From the NCBI RefSeq assembly GCF_900128905.1, contig NZ_FQTV01000003.1, positions 62,001 to 126,000 on the forward strand: a DNA stretch of 64,000 nucleotides, written 5' to 3'. A model generated the notes under the pieces. The model ran no database searches and was not told the origin of the DNA. It was given only the letters and a program-made list of their open reading frames with translations. This document shows, piece by piece, positions 16,341 to 39,474 of the stretch. The stretch's first letter is position 1; every line of letters begins with the position of its first letter. The position numbers and the translations under genes are program-made. This stretch comes from Bacteroides luti. Its GTDB lineage: Bacteria; Bacteroidota; Bacteroidia; Bacteroidales; Bacteroidaceae.

Positions 16341-16633
16341 CTTTTCTTTTGCCTTGATGCAAAAGAAACAAAAAATCAAGGCTGCACGAATTTTACTAAA
16401 ATCTGTGAGCGTGGAGCTAAAGGGGGTGAAACTCGCTGCGCTCAAACAGCACCCCCTTCTTAACGCTCCCCACACCCAGATTTCTTAACGCAAAATTCAT
16501 GAGGCCGGTCTTTCTGGGCACTCGGCTGCGCCATCGCTGATGGGGGTTGGAGCGTGTAGCCTTTGCTTCGCTGGGCTTTTGGGTTGGGCCCGGCTGTGCC
16601 ATCGTTGTTTTTTCTTTGTTTTGCTCGGCTTAG
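16341..16633 (+). repeat. Structured island repeat, copy A1
   Basis: Head hairpin with arms TTTCTTTTGC (16343-16352) and GCAAAAGAAA (16359-16368). Its loop CTTGAT (16353-16358) is complementary to ATCAAG at 16375-16380. The core helix uses AAGGGGGTG/CACCCCCTT at its tip and AAATCTG/CAGATTT at its base. The tail from about 16500 holds GGCTGCGCC-type mini-hairpins. A partial duplicate head lies just to the left (16318-16341). It bounds cassette 1 on the left. Confidence 0.9.
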
Positions 16634-16637
16634 TATT

Positions 16638-18002
16638 CTATTGTCTCATCAAGCGTATTACATCTGCCGGCGATAGTACATCTTTACTTTCGCCGGAAGG
16701 GTGATTTTTTAGAAATAGTTTTGCCACTATTATATGGTTTTTGGCAAATGGCAATTTTTCAGCTTTCTTTTTCAACTCAGACATTAATCTGTCAGTATTT
16801 TCTCCTGCTGTCCATTTACACTCACCAACGAACAAATATTTCTTATCTAACGATTCTGCAACAACATCTATCTCAATTTTTTCAGTACGGGAAACATTCC
16901 CCCACCACCTGCGAGCTATACCATAAGTAACACCGTCTATATCATTGCCGGAAACAGATTCACGACATAACTTTTCCCAATACTGAGCCACAAAGGCTGA
17001 AAATTGATTCTCATAAGCTGATAAGATAGGGGTTATTCTTCCTAACTCTATGAAAGAGCGATAGGGTACGATAAATCGAAAATAAAAATTCATGAAAGGG
17101 TCACTTATTTTATAGAGACTTTTTTTGGAGTTCTTTTCATCTTCCCCATATGGCAACTCTTTTTCGAGATAACCTAAAGACATCAATTTAGATAACGGAC
17201 GAGAAAGATTTGTAGAAACTTCCCCACACCGACCCGCAATTTCAGAGAGCTTATTAGCTCCTAATCCTACGTAAGACATGATGGTAGCGGTTTTTACAAT
17301 ATCATTCATATCATCTTTAAACAACTTCATAGGTTCCTCATATAAAGTGCCGTTTACCGATAACATATTATGCTTTATCGAATCAAGGAGATTTTTATCA
17401 CCCTCTCTCAACTCCCAGTAACGGGGAACACCACCCCATACAGCATACTCTTCTACTGCCTCTACGTCTGACAGTTTCAGTGCTTGCTGAATATATGGCA
17501 ATTTAATTGGCGCAATTTTAAGTATTACATCTGCACGCCCATATAAAGGAGATGTGCTATCCAATACCAATCCATACATTAACTGTTGAGATGATCCACA
17601 CACGATTAAATTATACTTTAACGCCTTTGAATCCAACTTCTTTTGCAGGATAGACGGAAACTCCGGACAAGCCGAAACAAGGTATGGAAACTCGTCAATA
17701 CATAATGTAAACCGTTTGTCCAGTCTGTCATTCAATGTATCTAACAAGGAGTCCCAATCCGGATAAATAACTTTATCGAACCCCGGAATAACACTAGCAA
17801 TCATCTTAGCCAACACTTCTCTTTGGTGTATTGCCTCAGTTTGGTCTGCAAGATAATAGACATCTTTTGAGGTCAGAACACGTTTTATCAGCGTTGATTT
17901 ACCCAAACGTCTACGACCATAAACAACAACAAACGATGTGTTGTCTGCTGCAAGTGCTTTAGTCAGTCGCCCACTCTCTTCTATTCTATCGACAAATTTC
18001 AT
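16638..18002 (-). CDS. P-loop ATPase with C-terminal DUF234 (archaeal-ATPase-like)
   Basis: 454 residues from the ATG at 18002. A longer frame would start at a TTG inside the -7 box, so the shorter start is preferred. Walker A GRRRLGKST lies at about 29-37 and Walker B LCIDEF at about 100-105. An ATPase_2 core is followed by a winged-helix segment (about 240-300) and a C-terminal DUF234 domain (about 320-440) with nuclease-like IEIDVVAES and VGECKW. The acidic-E-x-K pattern is that of PD-(D/E)XK folds. The family is common in mobile and defence-like neighbourhoods, but its biochemical role is not established. It is the sole cargo of cassette 1, with its stop 5 bases from the A1 tail. Confidence 0.85.
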   Translation of the reverse strand: MKFVDRIEESGRLTKALAADNTSFVVVYGRRRLGKSTLIKRVLTSKDVYYLADQTEAIHQREVLAKMIASVIPGFDKVIYPDWDSLLDTLNDRLDKRFTLCIDEFPYLVSACPEFPSILQKKLDSKALKYNLIVCGSSQQLMYGLVLDSTSPLYGRADVILKIAPIKLPYIQQALKLSDVEAVEEYAVWGGVPRYWELREGDKNLLDSIKHNMLSVNGTLYEEPMKLFKDDMNDIVKTATIMSYVGLGANKLSEIAGRCGEVSTNLSRPLSKLMSLGYLEKELPYGEDEKNSKKSLYKISDPFMNFYFRFIVPYRSFIELGRITPILSAYENQFSAFVAQYWEKLCRESVSGNDIDGVTYGIARRWWGNVSRTEKIEIDVVAESLDKKYLFVGECKWTAGENTDRLMSELKKKAEKLPFAKNHIIVAKLFLKNHPSGESKDVLSPADVIRLMRQ

Positions 18003-18023
18003 ATCTGCAATAATTATGTTTCG

Positions 18024-18054
18024 CAAAGATAATGTTTACTTAGCATAATAACAA
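18024..18054 (-). promoter_or_regulatory. Promoter of the DUF234 ATPase
   Basis: On the minus strand TTG (18052-18054), a 20-base spacer and TATCTTTG (18024-18031) match the Bacteroidota promoter exactly. The -7 box ends 21 bases before the chosen ATG at 18002. Confidence 0.8.
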
Positions 18055-18126
18055 GCATCATATCATCTTTTTCTGTCTGGAGTAAACAAGCAAAAATTGT
18101 CCTAACGATGGTAAATCCGAGAAATA

Positions 18127-18513
18127 AGGAAGCCAGTCGAGCAAAGCAATCCCCACCAGCAAAGGCTCAGCCAAACCAAGAAGAACCGTCACAAAGTGAC
18201 AGCAAGCGAAGCAAAGCTCATTGATCCACAACCCACTAGCAAAGGCTCAGCCAAGCAAAAAACCGTCACGAAGTGACAAGCGAGCGAAGCAAAGCTCATT
18301 AGTCCACAACCTACCCGAGCGATGGCGAAGCCGAGCGACCAGAAGGACTGGCCTCTTTTTTTTTGCGTGAAGAAATTGGGAGGATTGTAGCGAAAAGAAG
18401 GGGCTGCTGTTTGAGCGAAGCGAGTTTCAGCACCTTCCGCTACAAGCCTCACAATTTTAGCAAAAAAAATGCAGCCTTGATTTTTTGTTTCTTTTTGATC
18501 AAGCAAAAAGAAA
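18127..18513 (-). repeat. Structured island repeat, copy B1
   Basis: Read on the minus strand: head arms TTTCTTTTTG/CAAAAAGAAA (18488-18513), with the loop complementary to 18476-18481. The core base helix is AAATTG/CAATTT plus TTGTAGCG/CGCTACAA. The tail at 18127-18340 has GTCACGAAGTGAC and GGCGAAGCC mini-hairpins. A second head-like fragment follows at about 18521-18545. It bounds cassette 1 on the right, 44 bases from the stop of the next gene. Confidence 0.9.
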
Positions 18514-18557
18514 AGGTATTTGGAGTCAAACCAAAAGAAAAAGCCAGTTGCAAAAAT

Positions 18558-19082
18558 TTATAATGGCAACAATTGAAAGAGAGTTCTTAACGTATTTCGA
18601 ATATAATTTCCTTTATTTACAGGTAATTGAGGTAATGCGAGAGGAATTTGAAGATTATCCTCTTCATCCGGATTAATCTCTACAATTAGTCCATTCTTAA
18701 TGCGGTAAACAAAATATTGAGATTTGAAGCTTGAATTTAATTGGTTTGTAAACCAGATATATTCTTTTTCATCCTGTTCTTTCAGGCAGGCAATAAATCT
18801 TTCGAGATAATTAAACTTTTCATACCACAAACAAGCCGGATTTTCTATATATTCAATGGTAACGGTTTTAAAGCCCTTTGTAATATTTCCAAAGTCTTTT
18901 AAACGCTTGTTCAGTACCTTATACCACATATATCTTTCCAGACTATAGAATAATGCATAGTTTCTATCCCGTAACAGTTCAATATTATTACATATTGCAT
19001 TTGTTAATTCAGGTGTTAATTTTTCCCTGAGGTAGATTTTAGTTGGTGTTATATAACCATATCTTTCCGCAAAACTATTCAT
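18558..19082 (-). CDS. AbiJ-NTD4-like protein, possibly truncated
   Basis: 174 residues. The start SFAERYGYITPTKIYLREKLTPELTNAICNNI resembles the N-terminal domain (AbiJ_NTD4) of AbiJ-type abortive-infection proteins, which often begins FSERYGY. In such proteins a HEPN-type C-terminal half usually follows. Here the frame ends 45 bases from the head of repeat B1 with an unrelated tail (LPLPQLPVNKGNY region). Loss of the C-terminal domain when the cassette arrived is therefore plausible, but not shown. A TATATTTG -7 box lies 44 bases upstream at 19126-19133. The role as a phage-defence protein is an inference from weak similarity. Confidence 0.6.
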   Translation of the reverse strand: MNSFAERYGYITPTKIYLREKLTPELTNAICNNIELLRDRNYALFYSLERYMWYKVLNKRLKDFGNITKGFKTVTIEYIENPACLWYEKFNYLERFIACLKEQDEKEYIWFTNQLNSSFKSQYFVYRIKNGLIVEINPDEEDNLQIPLALPQLPVNKGNYIRNTLRTLFQLLPL

Positions 19083-20100: not shown

Positions 20101-20441
20101 CTTTTTCTTTTGCCTTGATGCAAAAGAAACAAAAAATCAAGGCTGCACGAATTTTACTAAAATCAGGGAGCGTGGAGCTAAAGGGTCTGAAACTCGCTGC
20201 GCTCAAACAGCAGCCCCTTCTTAACGCTCCCCACACCCTGATTTCTTAACGTAAAATTCATGAGGCCGGTCTTTCTGGGCACTCGGCTGCGACATCGTTC
20301 GGTGGGATTGGGGAACGAAGTAGCCGTTGCTTCGCTTGGCTGGCTGCGCCATCGTTCATTAGCCGTTGCTTCGCTCGGCTGGCTGCGCCATTGTTCTCCA
20401 ATTAGCTTTACTTCGCTGGCTTGTCACTTCGTGATGGTTCT
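20101..20441 (+). repeat. Structured island repeat, copy A2
   Basis: Head arms 20104-20113 and 20120-20129, loop CTTGAT, partner ATCAAG at 20136-20141. The base helix is AAATCAGGG/CCCTGATTT (9 bp). The apical helix has one mismatch (GGGTCTG against CAGCCCC). The tail has GGCTGCGCC and GTCACTTCGTGAT hairpin words. It is the left boundary of cassette 2. Confidence 0.9.
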
Positions 20442-20483: not shown

Positions 20484-21137
20484 TTAAAGAAGACTGACTT
20501 CCTCCTCAATATCTTGTTTTATTAACTCCCAATATTTCCCTTTCAAACAGATAGGGTCGAAATCAGCATCAGCATATTGAAAATCAATTAATTTATTTTT
20601 TAAATATTCTGGAGTAAAAGTATACGGATAACGTTCTGAATGGAGTTCAATCATTTGTTTAATTGACATAACATCCATAAGTTCATGGATATCCCAAAAA
20701 TCCTTTTTTCTACCATTTTGTCCAATAACCTCCATTTTCATTGCAGTAATTTCTTCAATAGAAGCCATACGTATAGAATCATAGACAAGTACTGGACGAA
20801 TGAATTTATCAGTATAGAATAAATCAACCTTTACAATATCATCTTCATTTTGGCCTATAAAATAACTTTTACCAAAACTATTATTTCCTTCATACTGCAT
20901 TTCTACAAAAGAAAATTTGTCCTGCAATTTTCTGTCTATCTGATCGAAATCAATGCTTCCATATTCTACATCAGTAAATAAATCTATATCTACAGATATT
21001 CTATGACCTAACTGAAGACTTAAAGAAGTTCCTCCAACCAGCCTGAAAGGTAAAAGTACTTCAATCTCCATTAATTGCTTTAATGTCCACCAAAGTGCAT
21101 CGGATACTGTTTCTTTATGTAGTTTTGTTTGCATCAT
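20484..21137 (-). CDS. AbiEii/AbiGii-type nucleotidyltransferase toxin
   Basis: 217 residues of the nucleotidyltransferase fold. G35-G-T-S38 is the nucleotide-binding motif and D50-I-D52 (HRISVDIDLF) the metal-binding aspartates. A later KVDLF supplies a third acidic position, and KDFWDIHEL is typical of this family. AbiEii proteins are toxins of type IV-like toxin-antitoxin systems linked to abortive infection. The reading frame overlaps the upstream HTH gene by 23 bases, which implies translational coupling with the antitoxin first. It is the second gene of cassette 2. Confidence 0.88.
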   Translation of the reverse strand: MMQTKLHKETVSDALWWTLKQLMEIEVLLPFRLVGGTSLSLQLGHRISVDIDLFTDVEYGSIDFDQIDRKLQDKFSFVEMQYEGNNSFGKSYFIGQNEDDIVKVDLFYTDKFIRPVLVYDSIRMASIEEITAMKMEVIGQNGRKKDFWDIHELMDVMSIKQMIELHSERYPYTFTPEYLKNKLIDFQYADADFDPICLKGKYWELIKQDIEEEVSLL

Positions 21138-21663
21138 TAGTGGAGATTAGGTTTATGCCAAAATATTTATCTGCATTCATTGAAAGTGTTGGTAAGAATT
21201 GAGGTAGTTCTTTTAATTCTCCAATTACTACCTCTTCTCCATAAAATGAAATAATTTCTTTTATTTCAGAATCACTACCACGTTCAAAAATTCGTCTGAT
21301 TATAGCTCGTTTATTTTTTTGCCAGTCAATTTTGTTTATATCAGTGTCCCAAAATAAGATTTTGCGAATTTTTGCCAGGTCAGGTTTTGTTTGGTTTTCA
21401 AGTAACATTTTACGCTCTTTCTCTATATCATAATAAGCTTGTAAAAGTGCAAAATATTCATCATCAACACCCAGCGCATGACCTAATTTTATAGACAACG
21501 CCGGATTAATACCTCTTCTACCTTTACTGATAGCATTAATTGTTTGAGGATATTCACCTAAAGATAAAGCAAACAATTTACTTTCTATCCCTCTTCGTTT
21601 CAATTCCCTTCTAAGAACAGCACCAGGATGGACCCCTTTTATTTTTTCTATTTTAGGTAACAT
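21115..21663 (-). CDS. HTH antitoxin (HigA-like HTH plus DUF6922-like C-terminus)
   Basis: 182 residues from the ATG at 21663. A longer frame to 21726 would overlap the promoter and adds residues unlike the family. Residues about 5-75 form a HigA/XRE-like helix-turn-helix (HPGAVLRRELKRRGIE, YPQTINAISKGRRGINPALSIKLGHALG). The C-terminal half (about 100-182, KILFWDTDINKIDWQKNKRAIIRRIFERG) resembles the DUF6922 segment found in partners of nucleotidyltransferase toxins. It probably represses its own promoter and neutralises the toxin encoded by the overlapping downstream gene. Confidence 0.8.
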   Translation of the reverse strand: MLPKIEKIKGVHPGAVLRRELKRRGIESKLFALSLGEYPQTINAISKGRRGINPALSIKLGHALGVDDEYFALLQAYYDIEKERKMLLENQTKPDLAKIRKILFWDTDINKIDWQKNKRAIIRRIFERGSDSEIKEIISFYGEEVVIGELKELPQFLPTLSMNADKYFGINLISTNDANKTT

Positions 21664-21683
21664 ATTATTTCTATTAGTAGACA

Positions 21684-21713
21684 CAAATCTAATAATAAAA
21701 TCCTGATAAACAA
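21684..21713 (-). promoter_or_regulatory. Promoter of the toxin-antitoxin pair
   Basis: On the minus strand TTG (21711-21713), 19 bases and TAGATTTG (21684-21691). The -7 box ends 20 bases before the ATG at 21663 and supports that start. Confidence 0.75.
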
Positions 21714-21751
21714 ATCTGTTTATCAATTAATTCACTTAATTATTTTCAGCC

Positions 21752-22058
21752 TTCGCAAATGGCAAAGGCGAAGCCGAGCCCAACAGCCGAGCGAAGCAAA
21801 GGCAGCGATGGCGAAGCCGAGTCTAACCTAAGAGCCAAGCGAAGCAACGGCTACACGCTCCACAACCGTAGCCCGCTCAGAAACCAGCAGGACCGGCCTC
21901 TTTTTTTTTGCGTGAAGAAATTGGGAGGTTTGTAGCGAAAAGAAGGGGCTGCTGTTTGAGCGAAGCGAGTTTCAGCACCTTCCGCTACAATCCTCACGAT
22001 TTTAGAAAAAAAAATGCAGCCTTGATTTTTTGTTTCTTTTTGATCAAGCAAAAAGAAA
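21752..22058 (-). repeat. Structured island repeat, copy B2
   Basis: Head hairpin 22033-22058 (arms TTTCTTTTTG/CAAAAAGAAA), loop partner at 22021-22026. The core helix contains AGGATTGTAGCG paired with CGCTACAAACCT. The head ends 7 bases from the stop codon of the GH5 gene. It is the right boundary of cassette 2. Confidence 0.9.
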
Positions 22059-22065
22059 AGGCCAG

Positions 22066-24091: not shown

Positions 24092-24640
24092 CTTTTCTTT
24101 TCCCTTGACGGAAAAGAAACAAAAGGTCAAGGCTGCACGAATTTTACTAAAATCAGTGAGCGTGGAGCTAAAGGGGCTGAAACTCGCTGCGCTCAAACAG
24201 CAGCCCCTTCTTAACGCTCCCCACACCCTGATTTCTTAACGTAAAATTCATGAGGCCGGTCTTTCCGGTTTCTGAACGAGCTACAGCTTTGGAGCGTGTA
24301 GCCTTTGCTTCGCTCGGCTGGCTGCGCCATTGTTCTCCAATTAGCTTTGCTTCGCTTGCTTGTCACTTCGTGACGGTTCTTCTGGTCACTTGGCTGCGCC
24401 ATCGCTGCCTTTGTTTCGCTCGGCTGGCTGCGCCATTGTTCTCCAATTAGCTTTGCTTCGCTTGCTTGTCACTTCGTGACGGTTCTTCTGGTCACTTGGC
24501 TGCGCCATCGCTGCCTTTGTTTCGCTCGGCTGGCTGCGCCATTGTTCTCCAATTAGCTTTGCTTCGCTCGCTCGTCACTTCGTGACGATTCTTCTGGTCA
24601 CTTGGCTGCGCCATCGCTGCCTTTGCTTCGCTCGGCTGGC
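24092..24640 (+). repeat. Structured island repeat, copy A3 with 106-bp tandem tail
   Basis: Head arms TTTCTTTTCC (24094-24103) and GGAAAAGAAA (24110-24119); loop CTTGAC pairs with GTCAAG (24126-24131). Both differ from A1 in a compensated way. The tail holds three full copies of a 106-bp unit (24315-24420, 24421-24526, 24527-24632), each with GTCACTTCGTGAC-type and GGCTGCGCC-type hairpins. Confidence 0.92.
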
Positions 24641-25131: not shown

Positions 25132-25551
25132 AAGTCACGAAGTAACAGCCGAGCGAAGCAACGCTAATTGGTCCACAACCCCACCCAAGCAAAGGCGAAG
25201 CCGAGTCTAACCTAAAAGCCGAGCGAAGCAAAGGCAGCGATGGCGAAGCCGAGTCTAACCTAAAAGCCAAGCGAAGCAAAGGCAGCGATGGCGAAGCCGA
25301 GTCTAACCTAAAAGCCAAGCGAAGCAAAGGCTACATGGTCCACACCCCCCACCCGAGCGATGGCGAAGCCGAGCAACCAGCAGGACCGGCCTCATTTTTT
25401 TTGCGTGAAAAAATTGGGAGGATTGTAGCGAAAAGAAGGGGCTGCTGTTTGAGCGAAGCGAGTTTCAGCACCTTCCGATACAAGCCTCACGATTTTAGCA
25501 AAAAAAATGCAGCCTTGATTTTTTGTTTCTTTTTGATCAAGCAAAAAGAAA
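25132..25551 (-). repeat. Structured island repeat, copy B3 with 48-bp tandem tail
   Basis: Head hairpin 25526-25551, partner 25514-25519, core to about 25395. The tail carries a 48-bp unit starting at 25201, 25249 and 25297, each with a GGCGAAGCC hairpin word. It is the right boundary of cassette 3. Confidence 0.9.
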
Positions 25552-25647
25552 AGGACAGTTGCAATATTCAAAAAACCACAAATAAAAAACCATCTAAAAT
25601 ATTCAAGTGTATTTGAAAATTCCTATATTTACAAAAAATATTCGGCT

Positions 25648-26922
25648 ATGATTGAATTAATAAACTCCATCAGAAAGTATAATTTCTGGGATGCTAACCC
25701 TGTTGATACAGGTTACAGACGTACAGCCTATACCGACAAAATCGGGCAATGCATTGGCAATAAATTAATCAAAGTATTGGTTGGACAACGCCGTGCAGGC
25801 AAAAGCTATATTTTGCGTCAAATAGCATCTAAACTAATCTCACAAGGGGTTAAAAGCGAAAATATACTCTACATAAACAAAGAGTATATGGAGCTTATAA
25901 CACTACGGAGTGTTATTGAATTAGAGGAATTATACAAAGCATACCTTCAGGAGTTAAAGCCAGAGGGTAAAGTCTATCTTTTTATTGATGAAATACAGTA
26001 TATTGAAGGGTGGGAACGATTTGTAAACTCCCATTCACAAGATTTTGCCGAACCTTGTGAACTATTCATTAGCGGCTCAAATTCCAATCTGCTGTCGGGT
26101 GAGTTGGCAACTCTTTTGTCTGGTCGTTATGTAAAGTTTGAGGTATTTCCATTTAGCTATACAGAGTATTGCGGAATAACGGAGCAGGAAGTAGGTATTA
26201 ACAGTTATAAAAAATATCTTCAAAGCGGAGCCTTGCCCGAGCTCTTTAACTTATCCGGCGATGAGATGAAACAGAACTATATATCTTCAATTAAAGATAC
26301 TGTTATGTTGCGAGACATTGTGAGTAGATATAAAGTTAAAGATATCAAACTATTGGATAACCTGTTTGTCTATTTGGTAAATAGTGCTGCAAACATCGTG
26401 TCGGTTACAAACATCATAAATTTCTTTGCATCAAAAAAAAGAAAGACCAATTACGAAACATTATCAACATATATAACCTATCTTGAAAACTCTTTCTTAG
26501 TGCATCGTGCAGAGAGATATAATATCAAGGGAAAGGATACCATTTCAGGCAACTGTAAATTCTACCTCAATGATTTAAGTTATCGCAACTATCTTTATTC
26601 GGGGTATGGCTATGGTCTTGGTTATCTCCTGGAAAACGCTGTCTATCTAAGTTTAAGACGTGCAGGATATCAGGTTTACGTAGGAACAATTAAAGATGCA
26701 GAGGTTGATTTCGTAGCTATTAAGGGGGATAGAAAACTTTACTTACAAGTTACACTTCAATTGACAGAAGAACAGACCGTCGAAAGAGAATATCGTTCGT
26801 TGAAGCTCATAGATGATAATTTTGATAAATATGTGGTGAGTATGGACGACTATAAAATTCCCACAAACGAGGGTATCGAACATCTATCAGCATGGAATTT
26901 AGACAAAGTTCTGGGCTCTTGA
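25648..26922 (+). CDS. AAA_14/DUF4143 P-loop ATPase (first of two)
   Basis: 424 residues. Walker A GQRRAGKS at 46-53, Walker B LFIDEIQ with D114-E115, sensor-like ISGSNSNLLSGEL at about 142-154, and LSGRYVKFEVFPFSYTEY typical of the family. The C-terminal half is DUF4143, with a nuclease-like segment (DAEVDFVAIKGDRKLYLQV at about 350-368) of the PD-(D/E)XK kind. These ATPases are widespread and often multi-copy in Bacteroidota, and their role is not settled. The gene lies between B3 and A4, ending 12 bases before the A4 head. It shares domain order with 36910-38175 but is a distant paralogue. Confidence 0.88.
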   Translation: MIELINSIRKYNFWDANPVDTGYRRTAYTDKIGQCIGNKLIKVLVGQRRAGKSYILRQIASKLISQGVKSENILYINKEYMELITLRSVIELEELYKAYLQELKPEGKVYLFIDEIQYIEGWERFVNSHSQDFAEPCELFISGSNSNLLSGELATLLSGRYVKFEVFPFSYTEYCGITEQEVGINSYKKYLQSGALPELFNLSGDEMKQNYISSIKDTVMLRDIVSRYKVKDIKLLDNLFVYLVNSAANIVSVTNIINFFASKKRKTNYETLSTYITYLENSFLVHRAERYNIKGKDTISGNCKFYLNDLSYRNYLYSGYGYGLGYLLENAVYLSLRRAGYQVYVGTIKDAEVDFVAIKGDRKLYLQVTLQLTEEQTVEREYRSLKLIDDNFDKYVVSMDDYKIPTNEGIEHLSAWNLDKVLGS

Positions 26923-26932: not shown

Positions 26933-27376
26933 CTTTTCTTTTGCCTTGATGCAAAAGAAACAAAAAATCAAGGCTGCACGAATTTTACTAAAATCAGTGA
27001 ACGTGGAGCTAAAGGGGCTGAAACTCGCTGCGCTCAAACAGCAGCCCCTTCTTAACGCTCCCCACACCCTGATTTCTTAACGTAAAATTCATGAGGCCGG
27101 TCTTGCTGGTTTCTGAGCGAGCTGCTGTTTTGGACCAATTAGCTTCGCTTCGCTCGCTTGTCACTTCGTGACGGTTCTTCTGGTCACTTGGCTGCGTCAT
27201 CGCTGCCTTTGCTTCGCTCGGCTGGCTACGCCATTGTTCTCCAATTAGCTTTGCTTCGCTTGCTTGTCACTTCGTGACGATTCTTCTGGTCACTTGACTA
27301 CGCCATCGCTGCCTTTGCTTCGCTCGGCTGGCTGCGCCATTGTTCTCCAATTAGCTTTACTTCGCTCGGCTTTTAT
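26933..27376 (+). repeat. Structured island repeat, copy A4
   Basis: Head arms 26935-26944/26951-26960, loop CTTGAT, partner 26967-26972; apical helix AAGGGGCTG/CAGCCCCTT perfect. The tail contains the same 106-bp unit as A3 (marker words at 27219 and 27325, exactly 106 apart). It is the left boundary of cassette 4 and begins 12 bases after the ATPase stop. Confidence 0.9.
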
Positions 27377-27386: not shown

Positions 27387-28334
27387 TTATTCTACTGAAT
27401 ATACAATACTTTCAGCAAGTTCTTTATTTTCATGATAAAAGGAAATGTTGTCTGTTTTTTCATTTGCCTCTTTAAACCATTTATACTTATCACTGTACAC
27501 AAATGAAGTCTGATATTTGGCAATGTTTAGCTCTCTGATTTTTTTCGACTTAACAATTTCAGTTTTCGCTTCGTCGTACTTTTTTAAACGATAAAGTAGT
27601 TGTCCGAAGTTATTCTTTGTTTTCGACAGATATTTTTCATCTACTTGAAAAGAAAGTGCTTTACAGTAGCAAGACATCTCTTTTTCTTCTTCCCTTTTTG
27701 CTGCGTAGATTTCAGCAAGAGTAAGCCAATCTTTGTAGTTTTCAATTTTGTTTTTATTTTTTATATAAGAAATCCAAAATTCCTCTGCTTCGTCAAAGCA
27801 TCTTGCCAATAATAGCAAATTTACATAGAGATGATTCAATTCATCTTTATACTCACCCTTTTCAAAAGCCGTTTCAACCTCAGCCAATACATCAAGCAAA
27901 TTATCATTTCTTCCTCTGGCTGAAAAAGTTTTAGCCCAAAGAACAGTTATCCGGTATGCTATTCCATAAACCTTTTTTCCTTGCCACATAGACGAGTTCC
28001 AATCATTATCATCAAAATTCTCATATCCGCCTAAAATCTTACTTAATGGAAAGCGAAAATCTGAATGCAATTTTTCAAAAAGATACAAAAACTGAGAATG
28101 CACCATAGATGGGCGTTCTAAATCAAGCTCCAGATAAGCATCAATATACATTGAAACATCCTTATACACTGCTTTTTCCGCTATTCTTTTCTTCACCTGA
28201 TCATATAAAGTCCATGCATAAGCAACACTTATATATTTATCCCCGGGATTCTTTTTATGATAACCAACTGCCACCTCATAAGCCTTATCCTTATCTGTCT
28301 TCCTAAGCATATAAATTTCCTGATATTTATCCAT
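27387..28334 (-). CDS. TPR-like helical repeat protein (DUF7017/TOTE-like, tentative)
   Basis: 315 residues from the ATG at 28334, all-helical with TPR-like repeats (DKAYEVAVGYHKKNPGDKYISVAYAWTLYDQ; NHLYVNLLLLARCFDEAEEFW; DWLTLAEIYAAKREEEKEMSCYCKAL; NFGQLLYRLKKYDEAKTEI). The opening MDKYQEIYMLRKTDKDKAYEVA resembles TPR proteins of TOTE-type conflict systems, but this is weak. A 44-codon upstream extension would be read out of the B4 tail and through a perfect promoter, so it is not included. It is the cargo of cassette 4 and lacks an obvious partner gene. Confidence 0.7.
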   Translation of the reverse strand: MDKYQEIYMLRKTDKDKAYEVAVGYHKKNPGDKYISVAYAWTLYDQVKKRIAEKAVYKDVSMYIDAYLELDLERPSMVHSQFLYLFEKLHSDFRFPLSKILGGYENFDDNDWNSSMWQGKKVYGIAYRITVLWAKTFSARGRNDNLLDVLAEVETAFEKGEYKDELNHLYVNLLLLARCFDEAEEFWISYIKNKNKIENYKDWLTLAEIYAAKREEEKEMSCYCKALSFQVDEKYLSKTKNNFGQLLYRLKKYDEAKTEIVKSKKIRELNIAKYQTSFVYSDKYKWFKEANEKTDNISFYHENKELAESIVYSVE

Positions 28335-28358
28335 AGTATTGATTAAAATTTTAGCCCA

Positions 28359-28388
28359 CAAAGGTAACATAATTAAACTAAAAAACAA
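28359..28388 (-). promoter_or_regulatory. Promoter of the TPR-like gene
   Basis: On the minus strand TTG (28386-28388, at the edge of the B4 tail), 19 bases, then TACCTTTG (28359-28366), ending 24 bases before the ATG. It fixes the start at 28334. Confidence 0.8.
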
Positions 28389-28689
28389 GCCGAGCAAAGC
28401 AACGGCAGCGATGGCGAAGCCGAGCGAAAAAAGAACCGTCACGAAGTGACAAGCCGAGCGAAGCAAAGGCTACATATCCCACAACCCCACCCGAGCGATG
28501 GCGAAGCCGAGCGACCAGCAGGACCGGCCTCTTTTTTTTTGCGTGAAGAAATTGGGAGGATTGTAGCGTAAAGAAGGGGCTGCTGTTTGAGCGAAGCGAG
28601 TTTCAGCACCTTCCGATACAAGCCTCACAATTTTAGCAAAAAAAATGCAGCCTTGATTTTTTGTTTCTTTTTGATCAAGCAAAAAGAAA
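28384..28689 (-). repeat. Structured island repeat, copy B4
   Basis: Head hairpin 28664-28689, partner 28652-28657. Two additional head-like fragments (each with TCAAGCCAAAAGAA words) follow at about 28702-28750, so heads can be duplicated in tandem. It is the right boundary of cassette 4. Confidence 0.88.
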
Positions 28690-28788
28690 AGGACAGTTGG
28701 AGTCAAGCCAAAAGAAAAAGCATTTTGGAGTCAAGCCAAAAGAACAAAAAAACCAAGACATTTGCCTTTTTAATTCAATCAACAAACT

Positions 28789-32120: not shown

Positions 32121-32590
32121 GCTTTTTTGCTTGATTGCAACTGCTTTTTCTTTTGCCTTCATGCAAATACTTTTTCTTTTGCCTTGATGCAAAAGAAACA
32201 AAAAATCAAGGCTGCATATTCTCCGCTACTCCATAAAAGGTCTCCGCTAAAGAAAAAGAACTCGCTTCGCTCAAACAGCTTTTTCTTTTTAACGCTCCAC
32301 CCTTTCATTCCGTTTAACGCTGCGAATATGAGGCCAATCCTGCTGGTTCCTGAGCGAGCTGCTGTTTTGGGCCAACTCGCTGCGCTCAAACAGCACCCCC
32401 TTCTTAACGTCCACACTCCCAGATTTCTTAACGTAAAATTCATGAGGCCGGTCCTGCTGGTCACTCGGCTGCGCCATCGTTCGGTTGGGTTATGTACTAA
32501 TTAGTCATTGCTTCGCTCGGCTGGCTGTGCCATCGTTGCCTTTGCTTTGCTTGGCTTTTATGTTAGGTTCGGCTTTGCCTTCGTTTGATA
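32121..32590 (+). repeat. Structured island repeat, copy A5 (composite)
   Basis: The main head has arms 32173-32182/32189-32198, loop CTTGAT, partner 32205-32210, preceded by two head-like fragments from 32121. The first core is highly diverged but still folds: AAAGAAAAAG (32249-32258) with CTTTTTCTTT (32279-32288), and ATATTC (32216-32221) with GAATAT (32324-32329). A second, normal A-type core half follows at about 32355-32450, then the tail. It is the left boundary of cassette 5. Confidence 0.88.
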
Positions 32591-32759: not shown

Positions 32760-33656
32760 ATGCCCAATAAAGAATCAAGAAGCATCGATGAGCAAATTGC
32801 TCTACTAAAAAGCCGGGGAATGATTATCCGAGATGAAGCTGCAGCATTTAAGCAACTACAACACATCAGCTATTATCGTCTTAAAGGTTATTGGTGGGAT
32901 ATGCAATTTGACCGCGTAAATCATACATTTGCTCCCGGATCCTATTTTGAAGACACTATTGATCGTTATAATTTTGATCGTCAATTGCGATTAATATTAT
33001 TTGATGCTATTGAAATTATAGAAATAGCCTTACGCACAAAAATGATTTATCACCTTTCGCAAACCTATGGTGGATTATGGTACAAAAATGACAATCTAGT
33101 AGAAAAAAAAGAAACTTTCACCAAGCAGCTAGATGAGTTACAGAACGAATTTAATCGCAGTGGCGAAATTTTCGCTAAAGATTTTCGGAATCGTCATCCA
33201 AAAGCTAATCCCGATGCATGGATTATTTTTGAAGTTGCTACTATGGGAACCCTCTCAAAAATATATAAAAACCTAAAACATCAACTTCCACAAAAATCTA
33301 TAATAGCAAATGAAATGGGGCTAAACTTTCATAGCGAGCTTTCCAGTTGGTTAGAATCAATCAGCTATATGCGTAATATTATAGCCCACCATTCTCGCAT
33401 CTGGAGTCGCAACATGGTAAAGCGTCCTACTTCGCCTTTAAATCCACCACATCAATGGCTGCAATACAGCATTACTGAGGTACAAGCAAAAAAACCATTC
33501 TACGTTATTACTACCATGTTATATCTTTGCAATGCTATTGACCCGAATAATCACATAAAGTCAAAACTACTGCAATTATTTAATGACAATCCAACCATTC
33601 CTATTTATAAGATAGGCTTTTTCAATAATTGGCAACACGAACCAATCTGGAAATAA
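32760..33656 (+). CDS. Abi_2 (AbiD/AbiF) family HEPN abortive-infection protein
   Basis: 298 residues with the Abi_2 hallmarks: N-terminal SIDEQIALLKSRGMIIRDEAAAFKQLQHISYYRLKGYWW, then YNFDRQLRLILFDAIEIIEIALRTKMIYHLS, and the HEPN RNase motif YMRNIIAHHSRIW, with R205-x4-H210. Abi_2 proteins are predicted ribonucleases that trigger abortive infection. It is the sole protein gene of cassette 5 and sits one base after the T-run of a structured leader RNA, which probably controls it or acts with it. No antitoxin gene is present, so the RNA is the natural candidate for that role. Confidence 0.9.
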   Translation: MPNKESRSIDEQIALLKSRGMIIRDEAAAFKQLQHISYYRLKGYWWDMQFDRVNHTFAPGSYFEDTIDRYNFDRQLRLILFDAIEIIEIALRTKMIYHLSQTYGGLWYKNDNLVEKKETFTKQLDELQNEFNRSGEIFAKDFRNRHPKANPDAWIIFEVATMGTLSKIYKNLKHQLPQKSIIANEMGLNFHSELSSWLESISYMRNIIAHHSRIWSRNMVKRPTSPLNPPHQWLQYSITEVQAKKPFYVITTMLYLCNAIDPNNHIKSKLLQLFNDNPTIPIYKIGFFNNWQHEPIWK

Positions 33657-33704: not shown

Positions 33705-34036
33705 CAGTCAAGCAATGGCGAAGCCAGCCAAGCGAAGCAACGACTACACGATCCACAACCCCACCCAAGCGATGGTGAAACCGAGCCAAAAAAGAACCGT
33801 CACGAAGTGACAAGCGAGCGAAGCAACGCTAATTGGTCCACAACTGCAGCACACTCAGGAACCAGAAAGACCGGCCTCTTTTTTTTTGCGTGAAGAAATT
33901 GGGAGGATTGTAGCGTAAAGAAGGGGCTGTTGTTTGAGCGAAGCGAGTTTCAGCACCTTCCGATACAAGCCTCACAATTTTAGCAAAAAAAATGCAGCCT
34001 TGACCTTTTGGTTCTTTTGTGTCAAGACAAAAGAAC
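33705..34036 (-). repeat. Structured island repeat, copy B5
   Basis: Head arms GTTCTTTTGT (34011-34020) and ACAAAAGAAC (34027-34036). Loop GTCAAG on + (34021-34026) pairs with CTTGAC (33999-34004). Three positions differ from B1-B4 and each is compensated. It is the right boundary of cassette 5, followed by the HU promoter. Confidence 0.92.
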
Positions 34037-34080
34037 AAAGAAAAGCTCAAAAAATACCTCTAAAAACCCATTACTGCCCA

Positions 34081-35370: not shown

Positions 35371-35409
35371 ATCCCCGTTACCATTGATTTGTTGGTAATG
35401 GGGATTTTT
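35371..35409 (+). terminator. Terminator of the HU/amidase unit, overlapping the edge of repeat A6
   Basis: ATCCCC and TTACCA (35371-35383) pair with TGGTAA and GGGGAT (35393-35405), then five T. The first base of the A6 head (35407) lies inside this T tract. Confidence 0.85.
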
Positions 35410-35660
35410 CTTTTCCCTTGACGGAAAAGAAACAAAAGGTCAAGGCTGCACGAATTTTACTAAAATCAGTGAGCGTGGAGCTAAAGGGGGTGAAACTCGC
35501 TACGCTCAAACAGCACCCCCTTCTTAACGTCCACACTCCCAGATTTCTTAACGTAAAATTCATGAGGCCGGTCTTTCTTGGTTCCTGAGCGAGCTGCGGT
35601 GGTGGAGCATGTAGCCGTTGCTTCGCTCGGCTTTTGGGTTGGGCTCGGCTGCGCCATTGT
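35407..35660 (+). repeat. Structured island repeat, copy A6
   Basis: Head arms TTTCTTTTCC (35407-35416)/GGAAAAGAAA (35423-35432), loop CTTGAC with GTCAAG (35439-35444), the same variant as A3. Apical helix AAGGGGGTG/CACCCCCTT. It starts in the terminator T tract of the amidase gene and is the left boundary of cassette 6. Confidence 0.9.
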
Positions 35661-35972: not shown

Positions 35973-36583
35973 ATGGCAGCAATTCAGGAAAAACTAGCGA
36001 AATCGTTGAAGGTATTACAAAATTTGCAGAACGAGAGTGGTTTTGCAATCATAAAGTCTTCAGAATGGCCGCCCGTAGTTACTATCAGGCTTTTGAATCG
36101 GTAAAAGGTAGTATAAAACGCATATTGGAAGGTGAAAATCCAGGAGAGGTCATAGATAACGATCATAGGACATGGTATCGAGAACTTTTTGCTCCAAGTG
36201 TTACTGCCGGAATCTTAAAGCCGACCGATTTAGCTGGATATCGTACTGGGCAAGTTTATATTCGTGGTTCACTGCATACACCTCTAAACCCTGAAGCAGT
36301 ACGAGATGCAATGCCTGTCCTTTTCGAATTGCTTAAAAAGGAACAGGATGCACGTGTCCGTGCAGTATTAGGTCATTTTATATTTGTATATATTCACCCT
36401 TACATGGATGGCAATGGCAGGATGGGACGTTTTTTGATGAATGCCATGTTAATATCCGGCGGATACAATTGGACTATAGTCCCTGTTGAAAGACGCCAAG
36501 AATACATGAAAGCCATAGAAAAAGGAAGTGTTGATGGGGATATTACTGACTTCACATTATTTATTGCCTCATTATTAAAGTGA
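35973..36583 (+). pseudogene. Fic-domain protein gene with internal deletion and frameshift
   Basis: The first 32 codons from ATG 35973 (MAAIQEKLAKSLKVLQNLQN and FAIIKSSEW) are the usual start of a large class of Fic proteins. The frame then shifts and continues at about 36065 with AARSYYQAFESVKGSIKRIL, which in full-length relatives lies several hundred residues later. The C-terminal part (172 codons from the ATG at 36065) is intact and keeps the Fic core HPYMDGNGRMGR and the NDHRTWYRELF segment. The inhibitory-helix region usual for the class is missing. Either this is a relic, or the short form makes an unrestrained AMP-transferase fragment. It is the cargo of cassette 6. Confidence 0.75.
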
Positions 36584-36587: not shown

Positions 36588-36843
36588 ATAAGCCGAGCCT
36601 CCTACAGCCAAGCGAAGCAACAGCTACCCATTCCACAACCCCACCCGAGCGATGGCGCAGCCGAGCGACCAGAAGGACCGGCCTCATTTTTTTTGCGTGA
36701 AGAAATTGGGAGGATTGTAGCGAAAAGAAGGGGCTGCTGTTTGAGCGAAGCGAGTTTCAGCACCTTCCGATACAAGCCTCACGATTTTAGCAAAAAAAAT
36801 GCAGCCTTGAACTTTTGTTTCTTTTGGTTCAAGCCAAAAGAAA
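36588..36843 (-). repeat. Structured island repeat, copy B6
   Basis: Head arms TTTCTTTTGG (36818-36827)/CCAAAAGAAA (36834-36843). Loop TTCAAG on + pairs with CTTGAA at 36806-36811. This is the only copy with the A/T version of the loop pair and is fully compensated. It is the right boundary of cassette 6. Confidence 0.92.
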
Positions 36844-36880
36844 AAGCATATTATTGATCAATATATTGAAAGATAATTCT

Positions 36881-36909: not shown

Positions 36910-38175
36910 ATGGAAAAGCGGGTAATAAAAAGTCTGATTCTTGAGAAACAGAATGAAATTCTGAATATCGAGCTGGTAGAAAGACCACTTGAGTTGGAGG
37001 AAACAGCCAACTATGTGTTTGTGGGGCTTCGTCGCGCAGGTAAATCCTATTTGTTATATCAGCATATACAAACGCTGATTAAAACAAAACAAGCATCCAT
37101 TGAAGACATCCTGTATATCAATTTTGAGGACGAGCGAATTTCGTCGGTCAAAGTGGAAGAACTCAACCTGTTTATTGAGAGTTATAATGAAATGTTCGAT
37201 GGTAAACCCATTATCTATCTGGATGAGATTCAGAATGTAGATGGCTGGGAAAAGTTCGCCCGCCGTCTGGCCGATTCAAAATACAGAGTATTCATTACCG
37301 GCAGTAATGCAAAGATGCTCAGCAAAGAGATGCATACCACCCTTGGCGGCCGATTCATAGCAAAAGAAGTGTTCCCCTTTTCATTCAGTGAATACCTCAC
37401 CTTTCATCAAATCACCTTAGATCGTAACTGGGAATATGGCAACATTCGTCTGCAAGTAGTAAAATCCTTTCATGATTATTTCTATTTTGGCGGTTTTGCA
37501 GAATCATTCCCTTTGAAAGATAAACGAAGCTGGCTGAACTCACTTTATCAGAAGATTCTTCTTGGCGACGTTATTTCACGAAATGATATCAGAAACGAGA
37601 ATGCCATCAAAGTTCTTGTAAAGAAGCTGGCAGAAAGCGTTATGCAACCCTCATCACTAGCCCGGATAAAAAATATCATTGACTCAACCGGAACAACCAT
37701 TTCCCGCAATACCTTGGTAGATTATCTTCAGCTTCTGGAAGATGCCTACTTAGTGTTTGGCATATCCAATTACTCTGATAAACTGAGTGACAAGGAAACA
37801 TTTAAAAAGAGATATTTCTTTGATAACGGATTGCTAAACAACTTTCTGTTTGATCCCGAGACCAAATTGCTTGAAAACATAGTAGCCATCACACTGAAAA
37901 AGCACTATGGTGATGAACTGTTTTTCTACAACAAAAACATAGAAGTAGACTTCTTCATGCCTGGCGAAAAGAGAGCCATCCAGGTATCTTACAGTATTGC
38001 AGACGATGCCACAAGACAAAGAGAGATAAAAGCCCTGATTAAACTTTCTGAAGTATACGCTACAAAAAAAATGGAGATCATAACCTGGGATGAAGAATCA
38101 ACCATTCAGGAAAATGATAAAACAATAGAAATTATCCCTGTCTGGAAATGGCTTGCTTCTTTTCTTTTGCCTTGA
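36910..38175 (+). CDS. AAA_14/DUF4143 P-loop ATPase (second)
   Basis: 421 residues. Walker A GLRRAGKS at 39-46, Walker B IIYLDEIQ with D105-E106, ITGSNAKMLS and LGGRFIAKEVFPFSFSEYLTF. C-terminal DUF4143 with a DVISRNDIRNENAIKVL helix and a nuclease-like VDFFMPGEKRAIQV segment. The same domain order is seen in 25648-26922, but sequence identity is limited. Its last codons (SFLLP and the TGA at 38173-38175) are encoded by the first arm and loop of repeat A7. The repeat has therefore supplied or replaced the C-terminus. Role unknown beyond ATPase/nuclease-like folds. Confidence 0.88.
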   Translation: MEKRVIKSLILEKQNEILNIELVERPLELEETANYVFVGLRRAGKSYLLYQHIQTLIKTKQASIEDILYINFEDERISSVKVEELNLFIESYNEMFDGKPIIYLDEIQNVDGWEKFARRLADSKYRVFITGSNAKMLSKEMHTTLGGRFIAKEVFPFSFSEYLTFHQITLDRNWEYGNIRLQVVKSFHDYFYFGGFAESFPLKDKRSWLNSLYQKILLGDVISRNDIRNENAIKVLVKKLAESVMQPSSLARIKNIIDSTGTTISRNTLVDYLQLLEDAYLVFGISNYSDKLSDKETFKKRYFFDNGLLNNFLFDPETKLLENIVAITLKKHYGDELFFYNKNIEVDFFMPGEKRAIQVSYSIADDATRQREIKALIKLSEVYATKKMEIITWDEESTIQENDKTIEIIPVWKWLASFLLP

Positions 38176-38452
38176 TGCAAAAGAAACAAAAAATCAAGGC
38201 TGCACGAATTTTACTAAAATCAGGGAGCGTGGAGCTAAAGGGGCTGAAACTCGCTGCGCTCAAACAGCACCCCCTTCTTAACGTCCACACTCCCTGATTT
38301 CTTAACGCTAAATTCATGAGGCCGGTCTTGCTGGTCACTCGGCTTCGCCATCGTTTGGTGGGGTTGTGGAGCGTGTAGCCGTTGCTCGCTCGGCTTTTGG
38401 GTTGGACTTGGCTGCGCCATCGTTCATTAGCTTTGCTTCGCTCGCTTGTCAT
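38161..38452 (+). repeat. Structured island repeat, copy A7
   Basis: Head arms 38161-38170/38177-38186, loop CTTGAT (contains the ATPase stop TGA), partner 38193-38198. The base helix is the best in the set, AAATCAGGGAG/CTCCCTGATTT (11 bp). It is the left boundary of cassette 7. Confidence 0.9.
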
Positions 38453-38569
38453 TAAGTTTTTTGGTTGTAATATACACAATTATAAGGCTTTAGAAGAAAA
38501 CCAAAAATGCCGTTTTTTATCAGGAACAATTCCTGTTTCTTTGCAAGCGTATTAAAAAACATATAAAAA

Positions 38570-39139
38570 ATGAACAAAATTATTTCACCAAAAGTTTATT
38601 TCAAGAACCTTCCTGAATGGGACGGTACAGATCACCTTACAGCCTTTATTAACCGCGTGCAAACCACTAATCAGGCGTTGTGGATAGAAACCCTTACCAA
38701 ATGGCTGTGTGGTATGGTAAAATCTGAACTTTCCGGCAAACAGTGCAATACCCTCGTACCACTTATTTATGGCGAGCAATTCATAGGAAAGACAACTTTT
38801 ATCCGTAGCATCCTCCCACGCGAGCTTAGAGAATTCTACTCGGAGAAACCGATCGGCACGTACGGCGAAGAAATTAAACCGCCATTCGGGTATGTAATGT
38901 TTCACAGCTCCAACATGGAATACCCAATTCTTCATGAGGCGTGGTGTTACAAAGAGATGTATGGAAACACCCAAAAAGGCACCCGTGTGCCCTCTGTAAT
39001 TTACACCACCAGTTGTGAACAAGAGGAATGTTGCGAACCTTTCGTTTATTTCGAAGTAACAAAACAGATCGATAACGAAAGCCCGGTAAACTATGAACAG
39101 CTCTACGCACAGATTATGCAGAAGCTGAAAGATGAATAA
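38570..39139 (+). CDS. Solitary short VirE-like P-loop protein
   Basis: 189 residues corresponding to the VirE ATPase part of 29243-31447 (start KVYFKNLPEWDGTDHLTAFINRVQTT; Walker A YGEQFIGKTTFIRSILP at about 65-80; end PVNYEQLYAQIMQKL). About 60 residues of the middle, including the segment equivalent to NTEEIEAMNGRELNQYKA, are replaced or lost, and no primase domain is present. The 60 bases upstream match the leader of the full VirE-like gene (AATGCCGTTTTTTATCA, then CTTTGCAA). The gene therefore came with its own control region. It is the cargo of cassette 7; activity is doubtful. Confidence 0.7.
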   Translation: MNKIISPKVYFKNLPEWDGTDHLTAFINRVQTTNQALWIETLTKWLCGMVKSELSGKQCNTLVPLIYGEQFIGKTTFIRSILPRELREFYSEKPIGTYGEEIKPPFGYVMFHSSNMEYPILHEAWCYKEMYGNTQKGTRVPSVIYTTSCEQEECCEPFVYFEVTKQIDNESPVNYEQLYAQIMQKLKDE

Positions 39140-39147
39140 ACAAAAAA

Positions 39148-39169
39148 AGCCTCTCAGTGATGAGAGGCT
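39148..39169. terminator. Terminator-like hairpin after the short VirE-like gene
   Basis: AGCCTCTCA (39148-39156) and TGAGAGGCT (39161-39169), a 9-bp stem. On + there is no T run, while on - seven T follow. It may stop transcripts entering from the right. Confidence 0.55.
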
Positions 39170-39209
39170 ACTTACTAATATTAAAAATATATCATATACT
39201 ACTGTACAA

Positions 39210-39474
39210 AACAATGGCAAAGCCGAGCAAAAAACCGTCACGAAGTGACAAGCGAGCGAAGCAAAGCTAATTGGTCCACAACCGTAGCACGCTCAGGAAC
39301 CAGAAAGACCGGCCTCTTTTTTTTTGCGTGAAGAAATCGTGAGGATTGTAGCGAAAAGAAGGGGCTGCTGTTTGAGCGAAGCGAGTTTCAGCACCTTCCG
39401 ATACAAGCATCACTATTTTAGCAAAAAAAATGCAGCCTTGACTTTTTGTTTCTTTTGTGTCAAGACAAAAGAAA
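39210..39474 (-). repeat. Structured island repeat, copy B7
   Basis: Head arms TTTCTTTTGT (39449-39458)/ACAAAAGAAA (39465-39474). Loop GTCAAG on + pairs with CTTGAC at 39437-39442. The tail has a perfect GTCACGAAGTGAC (39237-39249). It is the last copy of the array, ending 8 bases before the -7 box of the wzi gene. Confidence 0.92.

What the first reader, a model, noticed from the sequence alone, without database searches (positions are those of the whole stretch)
16341..39474. Seven gene cassettes bounded by 14 alternating inverted structured repeats
A-type copies (16341, 20101, 24092, 26933, 32121, 35407, 38161) are all on +, and B-type copies (18127, 21752, 25132, 28384, 33705, 36588, 39210) are all on -. 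They occur in strict A,B,A,B order. A and B are recognisable subtypes of one family, sharing the head, the ACTCGC(T/G)(T/G)CGCTCAAAC tip and GAGGCCGGTC, but with different core arms. Heads face outward in every A-gene-B unit of about 1.3-2.2 kb. Random orientation would alternate across 14 copies only about once in 8000. The cargo is mostly of toxin, Abi or ATPase type (DUF234 ATPase, AbiEii pair, Abi_2, Fic). No transposase, integrase or recombinase is visible, so if mobile they move by an enzyme encoded elsewhere. I know no described element with this design.
Basis: partly seen in the sequence, partly recalled or inferred. Interest (0 to 1): 0.93.

Follow-up and report, generated by a model that had tools for sequence, protein, structure and literature searches.

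The report
Defence-gene cassettes between folding DNA repeats
A stretch of a Bacteroides chromosome is built from oppositely facing pairs of a DNA repeat whose one strand is predicted to fold up on itself; related species differ by whole defence-type genes with edges at these repeats, so the array likely serves as a gene-exchange platform, and the repeat's signature occurs in several bacterial phyla.

Summary
In detail: fourteen ~173-nt repeats alternate A(+), B(-), and all 24 BLAST matches in the genome lie in one 77-kb stretch. The genus is Bacteroides. Covariation supports a head hairpin and a long bulged arm. The conserved tip, read on the other strand, is GC-GNA-GC, a known ultra-stable DNA mini-hairpin; the tails carry 48 more on that strand, 0 on the other. 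G-U pairs are rare, so the fold is probably single-stranded DNA. The tip occurs in several phyla; no Rfam family matched.
Facing pairs joined two subtypes (40 of 40 at the strictest of three cut-offs, 34 of 40 at the others), the rule published for E. coli BoxC.
Between species, one whole A-AbiEii-B unit is present/absent, but so are gene-only and B+gene blocks; one gene lies inside a pair in one species and outside in another; some losses look like slippage. A-gene-B is thus one of several modules. Y1 transposase is absent from this genome and from 13 of 14 other Bacteroides carriers tested; no integrase lies on the array contig. Best reading: a large, tip-capped, BoxC-like repeat around which host replication and recombination swap genes. 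How it disperses is unknown.

The parts
16341..16513 (+). A repeat 1 (core)
   Evidence: CM R1
16638..18026 (-). cargo of pair 1: DUF234/ATPase_2 protein, 462 aa (PADLOC candidate PDC-S27); outside a pair in G003
18343..18515 (-). B repeat 1 (core), tail to about 18120
18558..19082 (-). between pairs: AbiJ_NTD4 protein (PDC-S32)
20102..20274 (+). A repeat 2 (core)
20484..21726 (-). cargo of pair 2: AbiEii (20484-21137) and DUF6922/HTH partner (21115-21726); whole unit absent from G026
21888..22060 (-). B repeat 2 (core)
24092..24264 (+). A repeat 3 (core); tail with 106-nt tandem units to about 24676; no ORF >=80 aa between the repeats of this pair except one overlapping B
25381..25553 (-). 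B repeat 3 (core), tail with 48-nt units
25648..26922 (+). between pairs: AAA_14/DUF4143 ATPase (PDC-S01)
26933..27105 (+). A repeat 4 (core); 106-nt tail units to about 27474
27387..28466 (-). cargo of pair 4: DUF7017 protein (PDC-M16B)
28519..28691 (-). B repeat 4 (core)
32171..32342 (+). A repeat 5 (core, divergent arms), preceded by a partial head and followed by a second A fragment from the tip onward (about 32361-32467)
32760..33656 (+). cargo of pair 5: Abi_2 (AbiD) protein; missing from the matching pair in G026
33866..34038 (-). B repeat 5 (core)
35405..35576 (+). A repeat 6 (core)
36065..36583 (+). cargo of pair 6: Fic-domain protein
36673..36845 (-). B repeat 6 (core)
36910..38175 (+). 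between pairs: AAA_14/DUF4143 ATPase (PDC-S01)
38159..38330 (+). A repeat 7 (core); overlaps the end of the preceding ORF
38570..39139 (+). cargo of pair 7: fragment similar to the VapE-like domain
39304..39476 (-). B repeat 7 (core)

Best explanation
The window holds an array of facing A/B pairs of a repeat whose one strand is predicted to fold as single-stranded DNA, and the array likely works as a gene-exchange platform in which host replication and recombination, rather than a dedicated transposase, insert, delete and swap accessory genes at the repeats. Each repeat has a head hairpin at its outer end, a long bulged hairpin, and a tip that on the complementary (bottom) strand reads CTGTTTGAGC-GNA-GCGAGTTT, i.e. 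a GC-GNA-GC DNA mini-hairpin; the tail adds more such sites on the same strand. Shown: the repeats, the covariation, the strand bias, the subtype rule for facing pairs, the species-to-species block differences with edges at repeats, and remnants that keep only one head hairpin. Inferred: that the bottom strand folds in the cell when single-stranded (replication or DNA uptake), that folding stalls replication and invites slippage and strand switching, that repeat-to-repeat homology then lets cargo be exchanged, and that cargo persists because much of it is of defence or toxin-antitoxin type. In design it is a large relative of E. coli BoxC/PIT; descent from BoxC is not shown. How new copies spread to new loci is open.
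For: Structure: 94.7% of 1350 cells paired, 24 of 33 pairs with two-sided changes, score 0.506 vs 0.129 shuffled and at most 0.127 when slid. Strand: bottom strand predicted more stable in 38 of 41 and 95 of 109; GC-GNA-GC in 200-nt tails of the 14 copies, 48 bottom vs 0 top; all four N occur in 125 tips (A50 T35 C33 G7). GNA mini-hairpins are exceptionally stable (passages of PMC4686876). Exchange: a whole A-AbiEii-B unit, an Abi_2 gene, a B+404-aa block and a B+AAA_14 block are present in G000 and not at the matching place in G026 (the 404-aa block is also in G003, and for AAA_14 G026 keeps a gene remnant); the DUF234 gene is on opposite sides of repeats in G000 and G003, and a Wzi block is inverted in G003 with an edge inside a repeat; Fic, AAA_14 and Fic-DUF4172 cassettes come in different order in G084 and G063. 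Slippage: at two intergenic sites, 30 best loci each, full pairs in 6 of 60, one repeat in 3, only a head-type hairpin in 9 (by eye). No linked enzyme found.
Against: Standard DNA energy parameters put the GC-GNA-GC pairs into the bottom-strand minimum-energy fold in only 3 of 109 cases and give the isolated hairpin no energy; the mini-hairpin claim rests on the sequence and on published oligonucleotide data. The same tip and two-subtype pairing in several phyla, with copies at unrelated loci, look like active dispersal, which slippage and homologous recombination do not explain. The mirror-repeat (triplex) signal is strong in 22 divergent heads but no better than swapped partners in 19 window-type heads. 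Published in vivo footprints did not show stable triplex for BoxC. The only clean empty site has about 110-130 nt of extra non-repeat DNA left of A, a left flank of only 70% identity, and no visible target duplication. In the covariation test one of five measures, further pair types, is not above shuffles (255 of 500 reach it). No strain-level data, only species.
Confidence: 0.5

Rival explanations
1. A and B are the left and right ends of a non-autonomous, single-strand transposable element (integron-like or HUH-like) moved in trans by an unidentified recombinase; cargo genes are passengers.
For: Distinct end types paired tail to tail (40 of 40 at cut-off 0.15; facing members 65-82% identical in 8 pairs from the tip scan); strand-specific fold; one whole unit present/absent; A-B-B-B cassette arrays in G063 and G084 with the B head 10-11 bp after a same-strand stop codon in 7 of 16 B copies; up to 45 tips per genome.
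Against: No gene family is shared by more than 11 of 119 loci, and the largest clusters were not identified; no PF01797 in G000 and in 13 of 14 Bacteroides carriers, absent from 11 of 36 other carriers; PF00589 has 4 matches in G000, none on C22; no target duplication at the one clean site; several losses look like slippage.
Confidence: 0.3
2. The repeat is an RNA element at gene 3' ends (terminator, stabiliser or small RNA) and the rearrangements are a side effect.
For: About half of the same-strand heads lie within 20 bp of a stop codon; structured and mostly intergenic.
Against: Head-side gene is on the same strand in 43 and on the opposite strand in 41 of 84 copies; G-U pairs are 6-9 times rarer than in the tRNAs examined; no Rfam match at curated thresholds in the window, none at the repeats of 16 loci; PIT elements showed no promoter or terminator activity, as reported in PMC4666352.
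Confidence: 0.1
3. Ordinary REP/BIME elements moved by a RAYT (Y1) transposase.
For: Inverted pairs of intergenic palindromes; RAYT subclass 2.6 genes of Bacteroidetes are flanked by atypical structures (passages of PMC6006769).
Against: Repeat is about 173 nt against 20-40; no RAYT in the own genome and in 13 of 14 Bacteroides carriers; in the 15 carrier genomes whose tips are fully listed, 1 of 35 Y1 matches lies within 5 kb of a tip (by eye).
Confidence: 0.05
4. Nothing but homologous recombination between old, passive repeats; the fold has no role.
For: Repeats are long and similar enough; block edges fall in or next to repeats.
Against: The fold and tip are conserved while arms change by paired substitutions, and the tip is shared across phyla, so something selects or copies the structure.
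Confidence: 0.05

Closest known systems
BoxC / PIT element / TM-ECO intrastrand triplex repeat of E. coli (Holder et al. 2015, PMC4666352)
   Same: Pyrimidine-purine-purine head (class II triplex type) in divergent copies; two subtypes A and B, inverted neighbours always one of each (5 of 5 in MG1655); intergenic; variable neighbourhoods; deletions of doublets that leave a hairpin ('palindrome effect'); no enzyme named.
   Different: BoxC is a 34-37 nt G/C-rich motif; the one doublet that I read (fepB-entC) has no long hairpin and no GNA tip. Here about 173 nt, A/T-rich head, bulged hairpin, GNA tip, mini-hairpin tails, and gene cargo between pair members.
REP / BIME / REPIN with RAYT transposase
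   Same: Interspersed palindromes often as inverted doublets.
   Different: Size; no RAYT in G000 and in 13 of 14 Bacteroides carriers. GTAG/CGTC tags were not tested.
Integron attC cassette arrays
   Same: Strand-asymmetric imperfect hairpins; gene + hairpin modules with TA-type cargo; tandem arrays in G063/G084 (attC features recalled).
   Different: No integrase on the contig; alternating orientation in the window; conserved tip rather than a variable terminal structure (recalled).
p-dif (XerC/D) modules of Acinetobacter plasmids (recalled, not looked up)
   Same: Modules bounded by inversely oriented sites, TA cargo.
   Different: Sites there are about 28 bp Xer sites; no such site was tested here.

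Membership tests
BoxC/PIT/TM-ECO | TM-ECO consensus CCCTCNCCC N3-6 GGGNGAGGG N3 GGGNGAGGG | tested here: not met
   Heads are A/T-rich TTCTTTTG..CAAAAGAA
BoxC/PIT/TM-ECO | class II Y-R-mirror third strand | tested here: inconclusive
   Mirror match 7.95 of 8 in 22 divergent heads vs 7.54 swapped and 6.30 shuffled; 5.53 vs 5.57 swapped and 5.12 shuffled in 19 window-type heads. In the tip-scan set 27 of 43 head-side hairpins have a purine-rich 3' arm, 15 mixed, 1 the reverse
BoxC/PIT/TM-ECO | inverted neighbours are one A plus one B | tested here: met
   40 of 40 facing pairs at cut-off 0.15; 34 of 40 at 0.2 and 0.25; the six exceptions are four in G084 and two in G063, where the subtypes merge at those cut-offs
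REP/BIME-RAYT | RAYT (Y1_Tnp) gene in the genome | tested here: not met
   0 in G000; 1 of 14 Bacteroides carriers; 25 of 36 other carriers
REP/BIME-RAYT | 20-40 nt palindrome | tested here: not met
   about 173 nt cores
Integron | integron integrase at the array | tested here: not met
   PF00589: 4 matches in G000, none on C22; the integron-specific model was not run
Integron | cassettes as gene plus one site in one orientation | tested here: inconclusive
   B copies of the G063 and G084 arrays fit, the window does not
Integron | attC R/L boxes and extrahelical bases | not tested
   no attC model was run
TIR transposon / MITE | target-site duplication | tested here: inconclusive
   none seen at the one clean empty site, whose left edge is fuzzy
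Known structured RNA (Rfam 15) | match above gathering score | tested here: not met
   0 in window; none at the repeats in 16 loci; Flavo-1 at 21 bits vs 42 needed

The most novel reading that the evidence does not exclude
A pan-bacterial class of cassette-forming repeats recognised as folded single-stranded DNA: one shared mini-hairpin signature, species-specific arms, and an obligatory left/right pair that carries defence genes without encoding its own integrase, moved by a host-wide or still unknown single-strand recombinase.
Probability: 0.3. Interest if true: 0.92.

Novelty: new variant of a known kind. Interest (0 to 1): 0.78.

Why it matters
If right, a DNA hairpin best known from oligonucleotide work is in wide natural use, and gives a handle on how bacteria shuffle defence and surface genes without a visible transposase. 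It would also tie E. coli BoxC, found in the 1990s and still without a mechanism, to a broader design with two end types, and make it testable: the subtype rule, the strand and the tip each predict what should change rearrangement rates.

Tried and rejected
Looked for a linked enzyme: clustering of 727 ORFs from the loci gave two larger clusters (11 and 9 loci, not identified) and four of 3-4 loci; Y1_Tnp; Phage_integrase. Considered a 3' UTR element because many heads abut stop codons; dropped after the 43/41 strand split. Considered Flavo-1 RNA (E 0.73): chance level. A k=2 clustering of subtypes gave 21 hetero and 14 homo facing pairs because in G000, G084 and G074 the two groups did not separate A from B; it was replaced by distance cut-offs on the arms only, of which 0.15 is the strictest of three tried. 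Plasmids hold 1 weak match each for two queries, viral contigs 2 tip matches. Printed forms of the tip were not found in the PMC library. Literature searches: among the titles listed (a small part of the hits for 98 and 99) only Holder 2015 describes something close; most subscription journals and preprints are not held. Structure prediction of proteins was not used. A first G-U control parsed no tRNA and was redone. E. coli stretches L250-L252 were fetched but not read.
Full report
What is there. The window is G000:C22:62001-126000. Fourteen repeats alternate as reported; cores are about 173 nt. All 24 BLAST matches of one A query lie within C22:60214-136839, 77 kb of a 4.12-Mb assembly (40 of 48 candidates scored); the covariance model finds 22 full copies there. 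The neighbourhood holds surface-polysaccharide genes (Wzi, Polysacc_synt_2) and a sulfatase. The genus is Bacteroides: a same-genus genome, G063, has a contig of 1,170,108 bp, the length of NZ_FNVX01000004.1, Bacteroides ihuae.

Structure. An alignment of 41 copies, chosen by me for diversity from 84 full copies, shows a head hairpin whose loop (CTTGAN) can pair with a downstream TCAAG, a long bulged arm, and an almost invariant tip, AAACTCGCTNCGCTCAAACAG. RNAalifold finds 30 pairs, 22 with two-sided changes. The structure that I named, with the pseudoknot, has 94.7% of 1350 cells paired and covariation 0.506, against 0.129 in shuffles (0 of 500 reach it) and at most 0.127 when slid; one of five measures, further pair types, does not exceed the shuffles (51 vs 50.7). 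The alignment mixes related copies, so the shuffles overstate significance; the slid control keeps relatedness.

Why DNA. The reverse complement of the tip is CTGTTTGAGC-GNA-GCGAGTTT. GNA loops closed by at least two G-C pairs are exceptionally stable in DNA; GCGAAGC melts at 78 C (passages of PMC4686876). The free base of the pattern is the N of GNA, and all four letters occur (A50, T35, C33, G7 of 125 tips). In the 200-nt tails of the 14 copies GC-GNA-GC occurs 48 times on this bottom strand and 0 times on the top; the whole 64-kb window has 38 on + and 44 on -. The bottom strand is predicted more stable in 38 of 41 and 95 of 109 sequences. G-T pairs make up 0.8% (top) or 1.3% (bottom) of paired cells, G-U pairs 7.3% in 15 tRNAs found in the DNA held. 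Against: with the energy set used the mini-hairpin enters the predicted fold in only 3 of 109 cases, and alone gets no energy.

Distribution. Thirty-six of these genomes, chosen because they carry it, hold 291 tips (my sum) against 1 of the reversed control. In 104 tips with enough flank, the head side has a hairpin of 8 or more pairs in 43 and the mirror window in 10; 27 of the 43 have a purine-rich 3' arm, 15 are mixed, 1 is the reverse. So head and tip go together outside Bacteroides in part of the set. No Rfam family matches at the repeats.

Pairing rule. Of 128 copies in 13 Bacteroides genomes that I laid out (some by one locus only), 80 have a facing partner within 2.5 kb. Facing pairs join two subtypes in 40 of 40 cases at cut-off 0.15 and 34 of 40 at 0.2 and 0.25, the six exceptions being in G084 and G063 where the subtypes are close; -- neighbours share the subtype in 16 of 20. 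An earlier two-group clustering gave 21 hetero and 14 homo because it did not separate A from B in G000, G084 and G074. In the tip-scan set, 16 of 121 loci show two or more tips; of ten close neighbours (under 800 bp) eight face each other, six of these with tips 211-261 bp apart; eight facing pairs have members 65-82% identical. Lone copies thus prevail in that set, though loci were at most 8 kb (11 kb for one viral contig) and partners may have diverged.

Exchange of cargo. Comparing G000 with two congeners: the whole A-AbiEii-B unit (window about 19991-22067) is absent from G026, whose flanks (left 70%, right 93% identical) are contiguous; the right edge is 7 nt beyond the B core, the left edge includes 110-130 nt of extra DNA before A, no duplication is visible. 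The Abi_2 gene is absent from the matching A..B of G026. A B+404-aa block is in G000 and G003 but not at that place in G026. A B+AAA_14 block is in G000; G026 has a remnant of the gene directly next to the A tail (by eye), so this one may be loss. The DUF234 gene (93% over 1420 bp) lies between tails in G000 and between heads in G003. A Wzi-lipocalin block (86%) is inverted in G003 with an edge inside a repeat head. In G084 and G063 one A is followed by eight B in one orientation; Fic (91%), AAA_14 (91%) and Fic-DUF4172 (87%) blocks recur in different order with edges at or near repeats. In these arrays 7 of 16 B heads lie 10-11 bp after a same-strand stop codon, two of them after ORFs of only 64 aa.

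Loss. At two intergenic sites that carry a pair in G012 or G021 I examined the 30 best of 113 and of 104 matching genomes. Site 1: pair in 3, one repeat in 1, head-type hairpin in 5, no tip in 21, three of which keep a core-like fragment. Site 2: pair in 3, one repeat in 2, one head hairpin only in 4, none in 21. The hairpin and fragment calls are by eye. At L287 the junction falls within short direct repeats of the type TCTTTCTTTTG, as slippage would leave it. Distant relatives may never have had the element, so the last class is not evidence of loss.

Cargo. In the window, 8 of 10 tested proteins (7 of the ten lie inside pairs, 3 between) match PADLOC models: PDC-S27, PDC-S32, PDC-S01 twice, PDC-M16B (candidate classes), AbiD, SoFic, and AbiEii weakly (best E 3.9e-5). 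But SusD and a hybrid sensor kinase (G063) and GDP-mannose dehydratase (G084) also sit in the arrays, and a GH5 cellulase lies between pairs in the window.

Enzyme. None found: Y1_Tnp absent from G000, present in 1 of 14 Bacteroides carriers and 25 of 36 other carriers; four PF00589 genes in G000, none on C22; no gene family in more than 11 of the 119 loci, those clusters not identified.

Relation to BoxC. I read parts 1-7 of 10 of PMC4666352. E. coli BoxC is a class II intrastrand triplex motif with subtypes A and B; in all five inverted doublets of MG1655 an A is combined with a B; loci are variable; doublets lose parts so that a hairpin remains; promoter and terminator activity and a link to mobile elements were not found. 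The present repeats share the plan. They fail the sequence consensus, and the one doublet that I read (fepB-entC) has no GNA tip or long hairpin. The third-strand mirror is clear in divergent copies but not in window-type heads. So: works like BoxC on a larger scale; membership is not claimed.

Verdict. Real, structured, not described in what the library searches listed, and a new variant of the interspersed paired-palindrome kind, with gene cargo as its special feature. The mechanism of exchange is inferred; the mechanism of dispersal is open.

Noticed in passing
window 29243-31447, 34166-35366; L038, L039, L045, L111: A primase-helicase (BT4734/VapE type) and a HU-like, 93-aa, amidase trio recur next to these repeats in G000, and by DNA similarity in G026 and G003, by ORF size only in G125; an HU-like gene also ends 11 bp before the single A of the G063 and G084 arrays.
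   Followed up: partly
window 24231-24676 and 27029-27474: Tails of A repeats 3 and 4 carry 106-nt tandem units; B repeat 3 has 48-nt units.
   Followed up: partly
L104: In G084 copies of the repeat sit beside a CoaBC-type flavoprotein gene and an exonuclease gene; L109 of G063 looks the same by ORF size. The element is not limited to accessory regions.
   Followed up: no
L011:12692-12736, L055:10530-10565, window 32121-32170: Tandem partial heads in front of full heads (first arm, loop and a few bases of the second arm), as if repeated events left head stubs.
   Followed up: no
L049:977-1043 and 2662-2728: Two equally scoring FopS sRNA matches about 1.7 kb apart.
   Followed up: no
window 7-1170: Diverged direct repeats at multiples of 168 nt, probably a repeat protein gene.
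   Followed up: no
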